In this document: positions 56,065 through 62,245 of the stretch, piece after piece
Numbering within the stretch: the first letter of the stretch is position 1
Layout: the number at the start of each line of letters is the position of its first letter
NCBI RefSeq assembly: GCF_017301615.1
Contig: NZ_CP059066.1
Coordinates: 1,020,001 to 1,084,000, forward strand
Direction of reading: 5' to 3'
Source: Koleobacter methoxysyntrophicus
Lineage (GTDB): Bacteria > Bacillota > Thermosediminibacteria > Koleobacterales > Koleobacteraceae
DNA length: 64,000 nt
The notes under the pieces: generated by a model
The model's input: only the letters and a program-made list of their open reading frames with translations
Databases searched by the model: none
Told to the model about the DNA's origin: nothing
Made by a program: the position numbers and the translations under genes

Positions 56065-57402
56065 ATGGACACATTGCAGAGGGTCCCTCCCCAGAACATA
56101 GAGGCTGAACAGTCGGTTTTGGGTTCCATGCTTTTAGAAAAAGAAGCCATTCTGTCGGCGAGTGAAATCCTTAAAGGGGAGGATTTTTATAAAGAATCTC
56201 ACAAAAAAATCTTTGAAGTAATTATAGATTTATATGATAAAAATGAACCTGTGGATCTGATCACGGTATCGGAGGAATTGAGAAAAAGGAATGCCCTCGA
56301 AGAAATCGGGGGTATTACATATATAACGGCTCTGGCAAACAGCGTCCCGACTGCTGCAAATGTAGCTTATCATGCGAAGATAGTTAAAGATAAATCCATT
56401 ATGAGAAAACTGATACACGTATCTACCAAGCTGGTATCAATGGGCTATGAGGAAGGAAGGGATGTAGAAGAGGTCCTGGATGAAGCCGAAAGGATGATAT
56501 TTGAGATCGCCCAGAGACGGTCTATGGAAGGGTTTGCTTCTATCAGGGATGTTGTTATAGAGACCTTCGATATGATAGAACAGCTTTATAAGAATAAGGG
56601 GAGGATGACCGGGGTCCCTACGGGTTTTTTAGATCTGGATGAAATGACTTCGGGTTTTCAACCATCTGACCTCATCATAATTGCAGCCAGGCCTTCCATG
56701 GGCAAAACCAGCTTTGCCCTGAACATCGCCCAGTATGCGGCAATACGTGAAAAGGTCCCTGTGGCGATTTTCAGCCTTGAGATGTCCAAGGAACAGCTGG
56801 TACAGAGAATGCTGTGTGCCGAGGCCCATATCGACAGCCACAAATTGAGGACGGGGAATCTGGATGAAGACGACTGGCCCAAGCTTGCCAGGGCAATGGG
56901 GCCTTTGAGCGAAGCCCCCATCTTCATAGATGATACACCGGGGATAAATATAATGGAGATGAGGGCAAAGGCGAGGAGGTTAAAGGCAGAAAAAGGCCTC
57001 GGTCTCATTCTTATAGATTATCTGCAGCTTATGCAGGGGAGGGGAAACAGCGAGAACCGTCAGCAGGAAATATCCGAAATCTCCAGATCCCTTAAGGCCC
57101 TTGCAAGGGAACTTCGTGTCCCTGTGGTAGCCTTATCCCAGCTGAGCCGGGCTCCGGAGATGCGCCAGGACCACAGGCCTATTTTAAGCGATCTAAGGGA
57201 GTCGGGAAGCCAGGAACAGGACTCGGATCTGGTAGCCTTCCTTTATAGGGATGAGTATTATCATCCTGATACGGACAAAAAGAACATAGCCGAAGTGATT
57301 ATAGCCAAACAGCGAAACGGCCCTACCGGGGTTATAGAACTGGTATGGCTCGATAAATACACCAAATTTGCCAATAAAGCCAAATATTATAATGAATCTT
57401 AG
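56065..57402 (+). CDS. dnaB: Replicative DNA helicase DnaB/DnaC
   Basis: Hexameric 5'-3' helicase at the fork. The 445 residues start with the N-terminal collar domain (RVPPQNIEAEQSVLGSMLLE), then the RecA-like motor with Walker A AARPSMGKTSFALNIA (~208), Walker B GLILIDYLQLM (~315), SQLSRAPEMR and DLRESGSQEQDSDLV (~375). The ATG at 56065 gives 7-bp spacing to GAGGGGGG; an ATG two codons earlier is too close. The DUF721 gene near dnaN may encode its loader. Confidence 0.97.
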   Translation: MDTLQRVPPQNIEAEQSVLGSMLLEKEAILSASEILKGEDFYKESHKKIFEVIIDLYDKNEPVDLITVSEELRKRNALEEIGGITYITALANSVPTAANVAYHAKIVKDKSIMRKLIHVSTKLVSMGYEEGRDVEEVLDEAERMIFEIAQRRSMEGFASIRDVVIETFDMIEQLYKNKGRMTGVPTGFLDLDEMTSGFQPSDLIIIAARPSMGKTSFALNIAQYAAIREKVPVAIFSLEMSKEQLVQRMLCAEAHIDSHKLRTGNLDEDDWPKLARAMGPLSEAPIFIDDTPGINIMEMRAKARRLKAEKGLGLILIDYLQLMQGRGNSENRQQEISEISRSLKALARELRVPVVALSQLSRAPEMRQDHRPILSDLRESGSQEQDSDLVAFLYRDEYYHPDTDKKNIAEVIIAKQRNGPTGVIELVWLDKYTKFANKAKYYNES

Positions 57403-57408
57403 AGGAAT

Positions 57409-57449
57409 GGGAACCGGGGGACCGTTGATAGGTTCCCTGATGTTTTTTT
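57409..57449 (+). terminator. Rho-independent terminator after dnaB
   Basis: GGGAACC (57409-57415) pairs with GGTTCCC (57431-57437), with TGATG and then seven T. Confidence 0.88.
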
Positions 57450-57599
57450 ATCCCACATCAATCCCAATATTGGGTCTGGTGGAACCGCTGTTTTTATTTT
57501 CTACATGTTGTTCATCCCGGTTCAGGATGTTTTCCTGTGTATCATATCCCAAATCTTCCGGTTCAAAGCCAAATTATTGCTATCCTGATCTTTTTTCAA
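57448..57599 (-). pseudogene. Possible small (~50 aa) gene with a frameshift
   Basis: On the minus strand a TTG at 57599 follows GGGAGG at 7-bp spacing and opens MKKDQDSNNL. In the next frame the sequence continues FEPEDLGYDTQENIL and ends with RPNIGIDVG and a stop at 57448. Joined, they would make an acidic small protein I cannot name. It may be a real gene with an indel, or two chance pieces. The rest of the 57403-57747 gap shows only the dnaB terminator. Confidence 0.35.
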
Positions 57600-57747
57600 T
57601 TCTGAGCCTCCCTTCTCATTCTCCTAGTTTTAGTATTCCTGTTGGGTTTTTGGTTTATACGAATTATTGAAAGGAAACAATAAAATAGTGTGGAATATTA
57701 CATATGGGAATCATATTATTATTTTTGATTGAATGGAGCGATTTTCT

Positions 57748-59403
57748 ATGATTATTGGTTTTGATATGGGGGGAACCCATGCAGATGTCGTATTGCTGAA
57801 AAATGGTGAAGTGTATAAAAAGACGAAATACCCCCGACAGGAAGATTTCCTCACATCGATCCTGAAACCACTGGATGAAATACTGAAAGATGAAGACCTG
57901 TCTCAGATAGAGAGAGTTATAATCAGCACTACCCTGTCAACCAATGCAATAGTAGAAAACAGGATGGGAACCGTCGGCATGATAGTTCAACCCGGCCCGG
58001 GGCTCAATCTTGAATTTCTAGAAGGCTTTTTCCCTGTGCATTATGTAGACGGCTATATAGACCACAGGGGGCGGGAAAGGGAGCCGTTGAATATAAGCCA
58101 GGTGAGGACTGCAGGGGAAAAACTGAAGGGCTGCGGTGCTGAATATCTGGGGGTTGTCGGGAAGTTCTCAACCAGAAATCCCATACATGAAATAAAGATT
58201 AACGAGGCCGTCGGGCAAATTTTTAAATATTCTACGATGGGCCACATCCTTTCAGGGAACCTCAATTTCCCCAGAAGGATTTTTACCGCATATCTGAACT
58301 CGGGGGTCTGGAAGACCTACAGGGGTTTTTTGGACGGCATAAAAAACTCTTTGGCCAAAAGGAAGATTATGGCCCCCATTTATATCATGAAAGCCGATGG
58401 GGGAACCTTCGAAGGAGAAGCGGCTGCAGATAGACCGGTGGAAACCATACTTTCGGGACCGGCTGCCAGCATTATGGGGGCTTTAGCACTAAACCCAATA
58501 AAGGAAGATGGGATAATCCTGGACATAGGCGGGACTACCACTGATATATCCTTTCTTGCTGAAGGGATACCGCTCTTTGAACCACGGGGGATAGAGGTTG
58601 CCGGTTTTAAAACCCTTATCAGGGGGCTGTATTCACGGTCTATAGGCGTTGGCGGTGACAGCCTGGTAGAATTTAAGGAAGGGCAACTGAAGATAGGCCC
58701 GAAGAGGGCGGGGCCTGCTATGGCCTTCGGAGGCTCCCTTCCTACTCCAACCGATGCTATGGTGGTCCTGGGCCTGTTGAGAGAAGGGTCTGAATCAAGG
58801 GCCCGAAGAGGAATAGAAACCCTAGCCCGGAAGCAGGGACTAAGCATCAGGGAAACGGCCGCCATGATATATGAAAAGATGGGAGAGATTATTGCAGGAA
58901 ATATAAGGAAGTTCCTTTTAGAGGTGAATTCAAGGCCTGTATATACTATATACGAACTTCTTCACGGTAAAAAGGTAAGCCCTAAAAAGGCAGTCCTTGT
59001 CGGAGGGCCGGCTTTGGGCCTTTCGTCCGTAATTTCCCGCAAACTGGGGATTCCCTGTACTGTGCCTAAAGGATTTGAAACAGCAAATGCCTTAGGGGCT
59101 GCCCTAGCCAGGGTTACTGCAGAGCTGACATTGGTTGCTGATACCCAGGAAGGGGTTTTAATTATAGGAGAAGAAGAAATAAGGGAAAGGATATCTTCGG
59201 GATTCACACTGGATGAAGCAAAGAAGCTGCTTTTTTCCCGCCTGAAACAGAGGTACAAGAAACTGGGGGGAGATTCAAATATCCCCGTGGAAATCATAGA
59301 ACAGGAGCAGTTCAATGTAGTAAGGGGGTTTTACACTGCGGGTAAGATAATCCGCCTGAAGGCTCAGGTAAGGCCGGGAGTAAGGAGGGATCGTGATGAT
59401 TAG
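57748..59403 (+). CDS. Hydantoinase/oxoprolinase family protein (HyuA-like)
   Basis: The 551-residue ASKHA-fold ATPase has phosphate-1 IIGFDMGGTHADVVLL at the start, ISTTLSTNAIVENR (~55), ETILSGPAASIMGA (~235) and phosphate-2 GIILDIGGTTTDISFL (~255). It ends with GGPALGLSS and an adenosine-like motif. Relatives use ATP to open hydantoin or 5-oxoproline rings or work with acetone/acetophenone carboxylases. No partner B subunit is present; a deacetylase-like gene overlaps its end instead. The ATG at 57748 with GGAGCG upstream is preferred to an ATG five codons earlier. Confidence 0.85.
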   Translation: MIIGFDMGGTHADVVLLKNGEVYKKTKYPRQEDFLTSILKPLDEILKDEDLSQIERVIISTTLSTNAIVENRMGTVGMIVQPGPGLNLEFLEGFFPVHYVDGYIDHRGREREPLNISQVRTAGEKLKGCGAEYLGVVGKFSTRNPIHEIKINEAVGQIFKYSTMGHILSGNLNFPRRIFTAYLNSGVWKTYRGFLDGIKNSLAKRKIMAPIYIMKADGGTFEGEAAADRPVETILSGPAASIMGALALNPIKEDGIILDIGGTTTDISFLAEGIPLFEPRGIEVAGFKTLIRGLYSRSIGVGGDSLVEFKEGQLKIGPKRAGPAMAFGGSLPTPTDAMVVLGLLREGSESRARRGIETLARKQGLSIRETAAMIYEKMGEIIAGNIRKFLLEVNSRPVYTIYELLHGKKVSPKKAVLVGGPALGLSSVISRKLGIPCTVPKGFETANALGAALARVTAELTLVADTQEGVLIIGEEEIRERISSGFTLDEAKKLLFSRLKQRYKKLGGDSNIPVEIIEQEQFNVVRGFYTAGKIIRLKAQVRPGVRRDRDD

Positions 59404-60715
59404 AGCCAAAAACCGGATGGGGCTGGTGTTTTTCCCGGCCTTTGACTGGGCGATCAGCCCCACCCATCCTGAAAGGGAAGAAAGGCTGCTGTATACCCGG
59501 GATCAGGTAGAAGAAGAAGGTATTTTTGATATAGACGGCATCAAGGAATATAACCCGGTAGTGGCTACTTATAGGGACATCCAGAGGGTTCATTTGTGTG
59601 TACCCGATGAGGCGTCAAGGGTAACTCAATCCCATTTGATTTCAGCGGGTGGAGCCATAGCAGCAGGAGAAGCCGTGATGAAAGGGGAAGTGGATAAGGC
59701 CTTTGCCCTGGTGAGGCCCCCGGGACATCATGCCATGAGAGTGGTCCATGGAGCCAGGGGATTCTGCAATATCAATATTGAAGCCGTGATGATAAGCTGC
59801 CTGAGAATGAAATACGGGGTAAAAAAGGTCGCTATAGTAGATACGGATTGCCATCACGGTGATGGAACCCAGGATATATACTGGCATGACCCCGATACCC
59901 TCTTTATTTCCCTGCACCAGGATGGGCGCACACTGTATCCGGGGTCGGGATTTCCGGAGGAGATGGGAGGCCCCAATGCGGTAGGATTTACCTTAAATGT
60001 GCCTCTGCCTCCCGGGACATCTGATGAGGGTTTTTTGTATGTTATAGATAATCTGGTAGTCCCCGTTTTAGAGGAATTTAAGCCCGAACTTGTTATTAAT
60101 TCAGCCGGCCAGGACAATCACTATAGCGATCCCATAACCAATATGAACTTTTCGGCTATGGGCTATGCCATGCTGAGCGAGAAATTAAATCCCCATATAG
60201 CTGTCCTTGAAGGCGGATATTCAATCGAGGATGCCCTGCCCTATGTCAATACCGGAATTATCCTGGCTATGGCGGGTCTCGACTACAGCAGGATTAAAGA
60301 ACCCGATTACGAACCAGGCAGATTCCGGGAAACCCAGGAGAGTATGGAATATATAAAAAGGCTTTGCAACAGTGTTTACGAAAGATGGAAAAACAGGAAG
60401 GACTACAGAGCAAAACTCATCAGAGGGGCAAAATATGTGAAGGAAAGCAGGAGGATTTACTATGACACCGACGGCATAATGGAGATAAGGGAAGAAATAA
60501 CGAGGGTCTGTGATTGTTCGGGTTTTTCTGTAATAACGTCCTCAGCAGATACCGGCTATACCGTAAAGGGCGTCATTATTCCCTGGAATGCCTGCCCTTC
60601 ATGTCATAAGGAAGGCCTTAAAGCCTTTGAAAAACTGGAAAGGGAGAGGGGTTCGACATCATTAATATATCTTCAGGATGTTATAAATGACAATTTTGTG
60701 AGAAAGAAATTTTAG
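59396..60715 (+). CDS. Histone deacetylase/acetylpolyamine amidohydrolase family protein with extra C-terminal domain
   Basis: The 439 residues: residues ~1-320 are an HDAC-type zinc amidohydrolase with RPPGHHAMR (catalytic His pair, ~115), VDTDCHHGDGTQDIYW (zinc Asp and His, ~150) and INSAGQDNH (~240, where the second zinc Asp is expected). The last ~110 residues are an extension with CDCSG and CPSCHKEGL that may bind metal. Bacterial members deacetylate polyamines or other small amides. It overlaps the HyuA-like gene by 8 bp, so the two are translationally coupled. Substrate unknown. Confidence 0.85.
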   Translation: MIRAKNRMGLVFFPAFDWAISPTHPEREERLLYTRDQVEEEGIFDIDGIKEYNPVVATYRDIQRVHLCVPDEASRVTQSHLISAGGAIAAGEAVMKGEVDKAFALVRPPGHHAMRVVHGARGFCNINIEAVMISCLRMKYGVKKVAIVDTDCHHGDGTQDIYWHDPDTLFISLHQDGRTLYPGSGFPEEMGGPNAVGFTLNVPLPPGTSDEGFLYVIDNLVVPVLEEFKPELVINSAGQDNHYSDPITNMNFSAMGYAMLSEKLNPHIAVLEGGYSIEDALPYVNTGIILAMAGLDYSRIKEPDYEPGRFRETQESMEYIKRLCNSVYERWKNRKDYRAKLIRGAKYVKESRRIYYDTDGIMEIREEITRVCDCSGFSVITSSADTGYTVKGVIIPWNACPSCHKEGLKAFEKLERERGSTSLIYLQDVINDNFVRKKF

Positions 60716-60724
60716 TTTCAAAAA

Positions 60725-60776
60725 AACAAAATCCGAACATTAATTTAAAATCACCTGTTGACATTCGGATTTTGTT
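60725..60776. repeat. Inverted repeat between the HDAC-like and FAD oxidoreductase genes
   Basis: AACAAAATCCGAA (60725-60737) is the exact complement of TTCGGATTTTGTT (60764-60776), 26 bases apart. It may be a terminator lacking a clean T-run, or an operator since the right arm abuts the -35 box of the next promoter. Confidence 0.6.
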
Positions 60777-60777
60777 G

Positions 60778-60806
60778 TTGACATTACTACTTCCTTCTGT
60801 TATTAT
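60778..60806 (+). promoter_or_regulatory. Sigma-A promoter of the FAD oxidoreductase-purA unit
   Basis: TTGACA (60778-60783), 17-bp spacer, TATTAT (60801-60806), 57 bp before the start codon. Confidence 0.75.
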
Positions 60807-60862
60807 TAAACGGCAAAGTATATGCTTCCGGCGAAAAATAAAACGAAACGGGTGATAAGCCT

Positions 60863-62245
60863 ATGAAAAAATACGATGTGATTATTATCGGTTCGGGGCC
60901 CGCCGGTATATTTGCAGCCCTGGAACTGGTGGAAAAAAAACAAGGGTTGAAAATCCTGATAATAGAAAAAGGTCAGGATATTGATGAAAGGAAGTGCCCT
61001 TCCAGCACCCAAAAGGTATCATGCCTGAACTGCCCCACGTGTTCTATAGTCAGCGGCTGGGGAGGTGCCGGCGCTTTCAGTGATGGCAAATTAACCCTGA
61101 CAGCTGATTTCGGGGGCTGGCTGGATGAATACATGGCCAAGAAAGAAGTTCAATCCCTGATAGATTATATTGACCAAATTTATCTCAGGTTTGGTGCACC
61201 GGAAAAAGTCCACGGAACGGACCGAGAAAAGATAAAGGAAATTCAGCAGAAGGCAGCTACTGCAGATTTAAGGCTGATTCCAGCAAGGGTTAAACATCTC
61301 GGAACCGACCGGTGTTTTCATGTGTTGAAAAATATGAAGGAATTCCTTGAGAAACGGGTGGAAATACTAACATGCACCTCTGTCACAAGATTAATTGTAG
61401 AAAAAGGGAAAATATCGGGGGTTGTAACGGAAAACGGTGATGAAATCTACGGCGAATATGTGGTATGCGGTCCCGGCAGGGAAGGGTCTGAATGGTTTGC
61501 CGGTGAGGCAGAAAGGCTAAATCTTGAGATGACCAGCAATCCCGTGGATGTAGGGGTTAGAGTTGAAGTCCCTGCCGTTGTCATGGAGCACCTGACAGAT
61601 GTAGTATATGAGTCAAAACTAGTGTTTTATTCAAAACATTTCGATGACAGGGTTAGAACCTTTTGCATGAATCCCTATGGAGAGGTTGTAATAGAGAATA
61701 ACAGCGGCCTTCAAACGGTTAACGGACACAGTTACTCCGATAAGAAGACGGAAAACACAAATTTCGCTGTCCTTGTCAGCAAGACCTTTACGGAACCGTT
61801 CAGAGAACCCATTTCATACGGGAAATATATTGCAGCCCTGGCTAATATGCTTGGGGGCGGGGTTTTGGTTCAGAGACTCGGGGACCTCCTATCGGGAAGA
61901 CGGTCGACAGAGGAAAGGATCAGCAGGGGCCTCATTCAGCCGACCCTTAAAGAAGCTACACCCGGAGATATAAGCCTGGTGTTCCCTTACAGGCACCTGA
62001 TGGATATCCTTGAAATGCTTCAGGCTCTGGATAAGATAGCACCGGGGGTGTATTCCAGACATACGCTGTTGTACGGGGTTGAAGCCAAATTTTACTCTTC
62101 AAGGTTGAAATTGACCTCCCGGTTGGAGACCCAGATAAAGAACCTATTTGCTGTAGGTGATGGTGCGGGTATAACCAGGGGTCTGGCCCAAGCATCTGTG
62201 TCCGGGGTCGTGGCTGCTCGGGAGATAATAAACAGAATAGGATAA
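60863..62245 (+). CDS. NAD(P)/FAD-dependent oxidoreductase (COG2509 type)
   Basis: A 460-residue flavoprotein with the N-terminal FAD loop DVIIIGSGPAGIFAALEL, a cysteine-rich insertion (CPSSTQKVSCLNCPTCSI, ~47-65) that could bind zinc or an iron-sulfur centre, GWGGAGAFSDGKLT, and a C-terminal FAD motif LFAVGDGAGITRGLAQASVSG (~430). The family is annotated as uncharacterised FAD dehydrogenase. The ATG at 60863 has only a weak GGTGATAAG site. purA follows 13 bp later. Confidence 0.88.
   Translation: MKKYDVIIIGSGPAGIFAALELVEKKQGLKILIIEKGQDIDERKCPSSTQKVSCLNCPTCSIVSGWGGAGAFSDGKLTLTADFGGWLDEYMAKKEVQSLIDYIDQIYLRFGAPEKVHGTDREKIKEIQQKAATADLRLIPARVKHLGTDRCFHVLKNMKEFLEKRVEILTCTSVTRLIVEKGKISGVVTENGDEIYGEYVVCGPGREGSEWFAGEAERLNLEMTSNPVDVGVRVEVPAVVMEHLTDVVYESKLVFYSKHFDDRVRTFCMNPYGEVVIENNSGLQTVNGHSYSDKKTENTNFAVLVSKTFTEPFREPISYGKYIAALANMLGGGVLVQRLGDLLSGRRSTEERISRGLIQPTLKEATPGDISLVFPYRHLMDILEMLQALDKIAPGVYSRHTLLYGVEAKFYSSRLKLTSRLETQIKNLFAVGDGAGITRGLAQASVSGVVAAREIINRIG

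What the first reader, a model, noticed from the sequence alone, without database searches (positions are those of the whole stretch)
57748..60715. Coupled HyuA-like ATPase and HDAC-like deacetylase of unknown substrate
The genes overlap by 8 bp, so the proteins are likely made together. A ring-opening ATPase of the hydantoinase/oxoprolinase class paired with a zinc amidohydrolase and a Cys-bearing C-terminal extension suggests a two-step degradation of a cyclic amide or acylated amine that has not been described.
Basis: inference. Interest (0 to 1): 0.5.

Follow-up and report, generated by a model that had tools for sequence, protein, structure and literature searches.

The report
ATPase paired with HDAC-fold zinc hydrolase
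Many anaerobic bacteria carry two neighbouring genes, an ATP-using enzyme subunit related to lactam- and hydantoin-opening enzymes and a zinc enzyme related to histone deacetylases, that are kept or lost together, so they probably form one ATP-driven amide-cleaving machine whose target is still unknown.

Summary
HyuA (57748-59403) and an HDAC-family gene (59396-60715) overlap by 8 bp. They are this genome's only HyuA and only HDAC by Pfam, and it has no HyuB, the usual hydrolytic partner. The two orthologues co-occur strictly in both samples searched: 47 of 101 relatives have both, 54 neither; in the phylum of a Desulfobacteraceae genome 33 of 148 have both, 115 neither; none has one alone. 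In 4 of those 33 the genes are far apart, yet both are kept. 36 of the 47 pair-bearing relatives have no HyuB match. ATP-site residues of HyuA and the His-His/Asp-His-Asp/Tyr site of the HDAC are conserved. The HDAC-partnered HyuAs form one clade in a small tree, have family-specific residues (K144, K220, D309), and the window's lacks Hydant_A_C. Best reading: HyuA activates a carbonyl with ATP and the HDAC replaces HyuB as zinc hydrolase. The substrate is unknown; neighbours change from clade to clade. Six paper searches aimed at the pair listed no description. New variant of a known kind.

The parts
57748..59403 (+). HyuA-like ATPase, 551 aa from ATG 57748 (556 aa from ATG 57733; residue numbers in this report count from 57733)
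   Evidence: Pfam PF05378 + PF01968, no PF19278 match; AF2 model pLDDT 91.9; best PDB folds N-methylhydantoinase, acetone and acetophenone carboxylase, caprolactamase
57757..57792 (+). phosphate motif 1, GFDMGGTHADVV (D11, T15, D18)
   Evidence: D11 and T15 in 86 of 87 rows (1 gap), D18 in 82 of 87; CapA-D11A nearly inactive (PMC8453981, passages)
58162..58164 (+). K144, family-specific lysine
   Evidence: K in 87 of 87; not K in 6 S-Me-THD-partnered and 1 long HyuA, nor in the four PDB chains aligned
58390..58398 (+). K220-A221-D222; K220 family-specific
   Evidence: K220 in 86 of 87, D222 in 87 of 87; Q at 220 but D at 222 in the 7 paralogues
58516..58554 (+). phosphate motif 2, ILDIGGTTTDISF (D264, T268)
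   Evidence: D264 and T268 in 87 of 87; taken as equivalent to CapA D295/T299 from the profile alignment and PMC8453981
58657..58659 (+). D309 in GGDS; G or S at this place in paralogues
   Evidence: invariant in A4, 87 rows; G or S in 7 paralogues
59382..59388 (+). Shine-Dalgarno-like AAGGAGG before the HDAC gene
   Evidence: read
59396..59403 (+). 8-bp overlap of HDAC ATG with the end of HyuA
59396..60715 (+). HDAC-family zinc amidohydrolase, 439 aa from ATG (440 from GTG 59393; residue numbers count from 59393)
   Evidence: PF00850; AF2 pLDDT 92.5; Foldseek top hits Kdac1 (8szu) and, among the next, HDAH (1zz0)
59429..59521 (+). N-terminal signature, residues 13-43 (FFPAFDWAISPTHPEREERLLYTRDQVEEEG)
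   Evidence: 17 of 31 positions invariant in 96 rows; pLDDT block means 71, 52 and 70 for residues 11-40
59726..59731 (+). catalytic H112-H113
   Evidence: 96 of 96
59846..59854 (+). zinc ligands D152 and H154
   Evidence: 96 of 96; role by homology to the HDAC motifs given in PMC11532494
60113..60115 (+). third zinc ligand D241, in AGQDNH
   Evidence: Q240, D241 and H243 in 96 of 96
60218..60220 (+). catalytic Y276 (EGGY)
   Evidence: 96 of 96
60428..60712 (+). C-terminal domain with four cysteines (possibly zinc-ribbon-like)
   Evidence: Cys at 373, 375, 401, 404 in 96 of 96; predicted strands and a helix with high pLDDT; no Pfam match for the window's own domain, only sub-threshold zinc-ribbon and other hits for two homologues
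57415..57439 (+). terminator-like stem-loop between dnaB and HyuA
   Evidence: the scan found 7 such sites in 57300-60950 against 4.7 (sd 2.4) in shuffles, so not significant in number
60722..60779 (.). inverted repeat after the HDAC gene, possible terminator
   Evidence: not among the terminator-like sites

Best explanation
The two proteins form one ATP-dependent amidohydrolase. HyuA binds ATP and activates a carbonyl of the substrate (a phosphorylated imidate/lactim or a carboxyphosphate-derived form, as proposed for CapA). The HDAC-family subunit supplies the zinc-activated water that cleaves the activated C-N bond, taking the place of HyuB/CapB. The C-terminal four-Cys domain and the invariant N-terminal loop of the HDAC are candidate contact or substrate-docking elements. 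Shown: gene pairing, co-occurrence, conserved ATP and zinc-site residues, absence of HyuB from this genome, absence of a Hydant_A_C match. Inferred: physical complex, order of steps, chemistry. Unknown: substrate.
For: Strict co-occurrence of the orthologues, 47 both and 54 neither of 101; 33 both and 115 neither of 148, including 4 genomes with the genes unlinked. Own genome: one HyuA, one HDAC, no HyuB; HyuB matched in 11 of the 47 pair-bearing relatives. Of 100 non-duplicate loci with both genes read, 50 overlap and 32 lie 0-50 bp apart. Correlated trees, r 0.88, 40 of 82 splits shared, 85 rows. HDAC-partnered HyuAs are one clade, 99/99, in a tree of 25 of them with 7 others. CapA ATP-site residues conserved and HDAC catalytic set invariant in 96. 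In caprolactamase the ATPase subunit is assigned the activation and a zinc subunit the hydrolysis (PMC8453981, passages). Six other short HyuAs sit beside an S-Me-THD (DUF917)-like protein (two Pfam-checked).
Against: No complex was modelled and no fused HyuA-HDAC gene showed among 110 loci. Classical HDACs work without ATP (general knowledge), so this one could act alone. The gap is 51-300 bp in 17 of 100 loci and the genes are unlinked in some genomes, so a fixed-ratio complex is not proven. The tree correlation has no species-tree control, so shared descent alone could give much of it. No transporter or catabolic gene recurred beside the pair in the neighbourhoods clustered. 11 of 47 pair-bearing relatives do have a HyuB somewhere.
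Confidence: 0.42

Rival explanations
1. The HDAC is an ordinary lysine or small-molecule deacylase and HyuA is its dedicated ATP-driven regulator, loader or reactivase, as some ASKHA-fold ATPases are; the chemistry is plain deacylation.
For: HDAC active site fully canonical; nearest folds are HDAC-like deacetylases such as Kdac1 and HDAH; HDAC is more conserved than HyuA (mean column identity 59% against 47%); ASKHA activators appear among the much weaker HyuA fold hits.
Against: HyuA is closest to substrate-activating subunits of hydrolases and carboxylases, not to activators, and keeps their catalytic Asp pair; an ATP-dependent HDAC regulator of this kind is not known to me.
Confidence: 0.25
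2. Two separate successive steps of one pathway: HyuA opens a ring, then the HDAC removes an acyl group.
For: Both proteins belong to amide-hydrolysing classes and are kept together even when unlinked.
Against: In caprolactamase the HyuA-type subunit needs the metal-binding partner subunit for product formation (PMC8453981, passages); that partner type is absent here and unmatched in 36 of 47 pair-bearing relatives.
Confidence: 0.15
3. A polyamine or lysine-derived compound, or a translation component carrying one (such as EF-P), is the substrate.
For: An epmA-type gene lies downstream of the HDAC in 23 of 80 loci, directly in 21 (one scanned, over the EpmA cut-off); in three related genomes the unlinked HDAC precedes a carboxynorspermidine synthase-like gene, and in one nspC as well; rlmN-type gene in 5 loci and a mutS-mutL-miaA-hfq-type cluster around the pair in about 9 (names other than rlmN, epmA and nspC recalled from sequence).
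Against: No EpmA over cut-off in any of 101 relatives; nspC unmatched in the own genome and in 46 of 47 pair-bearing relatives. Each link is confined to one clade or few loci and may be neighbourhood by descent.
Confidence: 0.13

Closest known systems
ATP-dependent caprolactamase CapAB / N-methylhydantoinase / 5-oxoprolinase (HyuA-HyuB family)
   Same: HyuA fold, both phosphate motifs and the strictly conserved Lys of CapA; if the model holds, an ATPase plus a zinc hydrolase make one enzyme
   Different: neighbour is HDAC-fold, not HyuB; HyuA is 551-556 aa with no Hydant_A_C match; K144, K220 and D309 are family-specific; no HyuB in the genome
HyuA paired with S-methyl-thiohydantoin desulfurase-like protein (DUF917)
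   Same: short HyuA beside a non-HyuB partner; no Hydant_A_C match in the two scanned
   Different: separate clade, partner in other Pfam families; permease and racemase next door in the locus scanned
Bacterial HDAC-like amidohydrolases (HdaH, Kdac1, AcuC, acetylpolyamine amidohydrolases)
   Same: catalytic domain and His-His/Asp-His-Asp/Tyr set
   Different: AGQDNH around the third zinc ligand, signature FFPAFDW...HPEREERLLYT, four-Cys C-terminal domain, HyuA companion; Graf et al. 2024 (PMC11532494: outline, section 6 and passages seen) has no occurrence of 'hydantoin' in its main text
Acetone and acetophenone carboxylases
   Same: HyuA-type subunits
   Different: no recurring carboxylase-type neighbour was seen beside the pair

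Membership tests
HyuA ATPase family (PF05378/PF01968) | Hydant_A_N and Hydantoinase_A domains over curated cut-off | tested here: met
   93.0 and 186.5 bits against 25.2 and 22.9
HyuA ATPase family (PF05378/PF01968) | ATP-site Asp/Thr/Lys of CapA conserved | tested here: met
   D11, T15, D18, K32, D264, T268 in 82 to 87 of 87 rows
5-oxoprolinase / hydantoinase / caprolactamase proper | HyuB partner | tested here: not met
   no PF02538 match in the own genome
5-oxoprolinase / hydantoinase / caprolactamase proper | C-terminal domain Hydant_A_C | tested here: not met
   no match, while one long HyuA-HyuB fusion matches it
5-oxoprolinase / hydantoinase / caprolactamase proper | ATP-dependent opening of a cyclic amide | not testable with these tools
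   needs assays
Classical zinc HDAC family (PF00850) | domain match over cut-off | tested here: met
   223.4 bits against 27.9
Classical zinc HDAC family (PF00850) | His-His, Asp-His-Asp and GGY residues | tested here: met
   96 of 96 rows
Acetylpolyamine amidohydrolase / HDAC10-like | gatekeeper Glu after DP (position recalled, from no call) | tested here: not met
   position 248 is I in 62 and L in 34 of 96 rows
Classical zinc HDAC family (PF00850) | deacylase activity on acyl-lysine | not testable with these tools
   needs assays

The most novel reading that the evidence does not exclude
An enzyme widespread in anaerobes in which an HDAC-fold subunit has been recruited to a HyuA ATPase: the first ATP-driven HDAC-type hydrolase, acting on a stable amide or lactam (perhaps a modification or damage product on a translation component or a lysine/polyamine derivative) that plain HDACs cannot cleave.
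Probability: 0.3. Interest if true: 0.75.

Novelty: new variant of a known kind. Interest (0 to 1): 0.55.

Why it matters
HDACs are among the best-studied hydrolases and none is known to me to need ATP. A two-gene system kept or lost as a unit in the 249 genomes examined (80 with both orthologues, 0 with one alone) makes a clear prediction that can be tested with two purified proteins. It would also suggest that HyuA ATPases are a module that can be joined to unrelated partners (HyuB, S-Me-THD, HDAC).

Tried and rejected
Wood-Ljungdahl link: ACS (PF03598) in 39 of 101 relatives but unmatched in the own genome; rejected as a requirement. EF-P/EpmA link: 0 of 101 relatives over the EpmA cut-off; kept only as a clade-specific lead. 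Carboxynorspermidine link: nspC in 8 of 101, one of them (G028) pair-bearing; not general. Fused HyuA-HDAC gene: none seen among 110 loci. C-terminal Cys domain: no PDB sequence relative of note for one homologue's domain and no Pfam family over cut-off for three; no NCBIfam match for 31 whole HDACs. Literature: nine answered searches; six aimed at the pair or at bacterial HDACs and three at polyamines, caprolactamase and DUF917. One search (hydantoinase, oxoprolinase, histone deacetylase, operon) found no paper with all four; the others listed only 8-20 rows of up to 496 papers, so absence is of the listed rows. Three papers were opened: PMC11532494 (outline, section 6, passages), PMC8453981 (passages) and PMC10040529 (passages; it lists a histone deacetylase and a hydantoinase B in a table as separate gene clusters, not this pair).

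Limits: genomes of one sample are related, so Fisher p-values (6e-30 and 1e-33) overstate independence. Orthologue was separated from paralogue by E-value, chosen after seeing the lists: HyuA at or below 2.8e-69 (next 2.4e-57) and HDAC at or below 6.5e-138 (next 2.7e-61), cut-offs 1e-100 and 1e-60 were set beforehand and weaker matches were not shown. 'Neither' means neither orthologue: some of those genomes have other HyuAs or HDACs; 74 of 80 adjacent, 4 contigs end just upstream (L094, L132, L145, L171; L145 still shows a HyuA-like C-terminal fragment that clusters with that of L113), 2 unlinked (L139, L149); the genomes of L139, L149, L132 and L094 each have a HyuA match on another contig, partial (334 aa) for L094. 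In L117 the HyuA match meets a stop at residue 5 of the aligned stretch; it was dropped from A4 and is the one locus with a gap over 300 bp. In one search, 9 of 145 loci had no anchor called and were not counted. A3 used 95 of 106 and A4 86 of 95 listed homologues plus the window. The mirror-tree run had no species-tree control.
Full report
What is there. The window (1020001-1084000 of a 3.1-Mb single-contig genome) carries at 57748-60715 two overlapping + strand genes. The first is a 551-aa HyuA-type ATPase (PF05378, PF01968). The second is a 439-aa HDAC-family protein (PF00850) with a C-terminal extension bearing four cysteines. A terminator-like stem follows dnaB (57415-57439) and an inverted repeat follows the HDAC gene (60722-60779); a promoter-like site with 11 of 12 matches (60778-60806) precedes the next gene. 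So the pair could be an independent two-gene transcription unit, although such sites are not more numerous here than in shuffles beyond one or so standard deviations.

Is the pairing real? Yes. In 101 relatives the HDAC orthologue and the HyuA orthologue are found in exactly the same 47 genomes, on one contig, in the same order and on the same strand, with aligned parts -8 to 127 bp apart. In 148 genomes of the phylum of G102 (the genome of a Desulfobacteraceae MAG), the same 33 genomes have both; 29 have them adjacent, and in 4 (G102, G180, G213, G242) they lie far apart or on different contigs. Together: 80 with both, 169 with neither, none with one. Of these 80, 74 have HyuA directly upstream, 4 contigs end too close, 2 are unlinked, and the two unlinked genomes still have a HyuA. 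Of 100 non-duplicate loci with both genes read, 50 overlap, 32 are 0-50 bp apart, 17 are 51-300 bp apart and 1 (L117) is an artefact of a stop. Retention when unlinked is the strongest sign of functional dependence. These samples are not phylogenetically independent; still, within one family (f4) a 99%-complete genome (G005) lacks both while others have both.

Which partner does this HyuA have? In the characterised relatives seen here the HyuA-type subunit works with a second catalytic subunit or domain (PMC8453981, passages). The own genome has one HyuA, one HDAC and no HyuB. Of the 47 pair-bearing relatives, 11 match HyuB somewhere and 36 do not. The window's HyuA has no match to the Hydant_A_C domain that one long HyuA-HyuB fusion has. 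Six short HyuA paralogues in relatives sit beside an S-Me-THD (DUF917)-like protein, judged by sequence start in the six loci and by Pfam in two (L173, L177), with a permease and an Asp/Glu/hydantoin racemase confirmed in L177. The HDAC-partnered HyuAs form one clade against them (99/99; 25 of the 87 rows of A4 used, with 6 S-Me-THD-partnered and 1 long HyuA). So short HyuAs may be a module with alternative partners; this generalisation rests on few loci.

Active sites. CapA residues of the ATP site (Asp11, Thr15, Asp18, Lys32, Asp295, Thr299; PMC8453981, passages) have equivalents here present in 82 to 87 of 87 rows; equivalence of the second motif was read from the profile alignment. K144, K220 and D309 are invariant or nearly so here and differ in the 7 paralogues compared; D222 is shared with them. 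In 96 HDAC rows the catalytic H112, H113, D152, H154, D241, Y276 and the four cysteines are invariant, as are Q240 and H243 next to the third zinc ligand. Residues 13-43 hold 17 invariant positions of 31, yet the model is least sure there (block means 71, 52, 70 for residues 11-40), which would fit a loop ordered by a partner or substrate; this is inference. Models are otherwise confident and match Kdac1/HDAH and N-methylhydantoinase, carboxylases and caprolactamase.

How it most likely works. By analogy with caprolactamase, where the ATPase subunit is assigned the activation and a zinc subunit the hydrolysis, HyuA would activate a carbonyl and the HDAC subunit would hydrolyse the activated amide. 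This is my best explanation (0.42).

What the neighbours say. Gene names in this paragraph are recalled from sequence unless a family search is cited. The pair moves between housekeeping settings: rplI-dnaB-[pair]-FAD protein-purA here; after a murB-like gene in 4 class relatives; within a miaB-mutS-[pair]-mutL-miaA-hfq-type cluster in about 9 loci; before epmA in 23 of 80 loci, directly in 21 (EpmA model over cut-off for the one scanned); with rlmN in 5 (one scanned). Unlinked HDAC genes in three related genomes precede a carboxynorspermidine synthase-like gene (two scanned, both matching NF043000 below its curated cut-off; the third by similarity), with nspC over cut-off in one. The unlinked HyuA genes of the same genomes precede a trmL-like gene, directly in two of three. 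The epmA and nspC links are not general.

Novelty. Of nine answered searches of the paper library, six were aimed at the pair or at bacterial HDACs; no listed row describes the pair, and the 2024 survey of bacterial deacylases has no occurrence of 'hydantoin' in its main text. Most subscription papers are not in the library. Both protein families are known; the strict combination and its implied ATP-dependent HDAC-type hydrolysis appear undescribed in what I could search. I file it as a new variant of a known kind.

Noticed in passing
window 58001-60000: GC of this stretch is 49.5%, against 34.0-45.3% in the other 2-kb steps of the window.
   Followed up: no
L188, L190, L192 (G242, G213, G180): Where HDAC is unlinked from HyuA it lies directly upstream of a carboxynorspermidine synthase-like gene; in L188 nspC follows.
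   Followed up: partly
23 of 80 genome-contig loci, for example L103:9342-10286: An epmA-type gene (EF-P lysine ligase; L103's over the EpmA cut-off) lies downstream of the HDAC, directly in 21 of 23.
   Followed up: partly
L173-L178: Short HyuA paralogues beside an S-Me-THD (DUF917)-like protein; Pfam-checked in L173 and L177, with permease and racemase checked in L177.
   Followed up: partly
window 59429-59521: HDAC N-terminal segment with 17 of 31 invariant positions that AlphaFold2 models with low confidence.
   Followed up: no
G021:C147 and L117: HyuA appears split into two frames (G021) or carries a stop near the start of the aligned stretch (L117); could be assembly errors.
   Followed up: no
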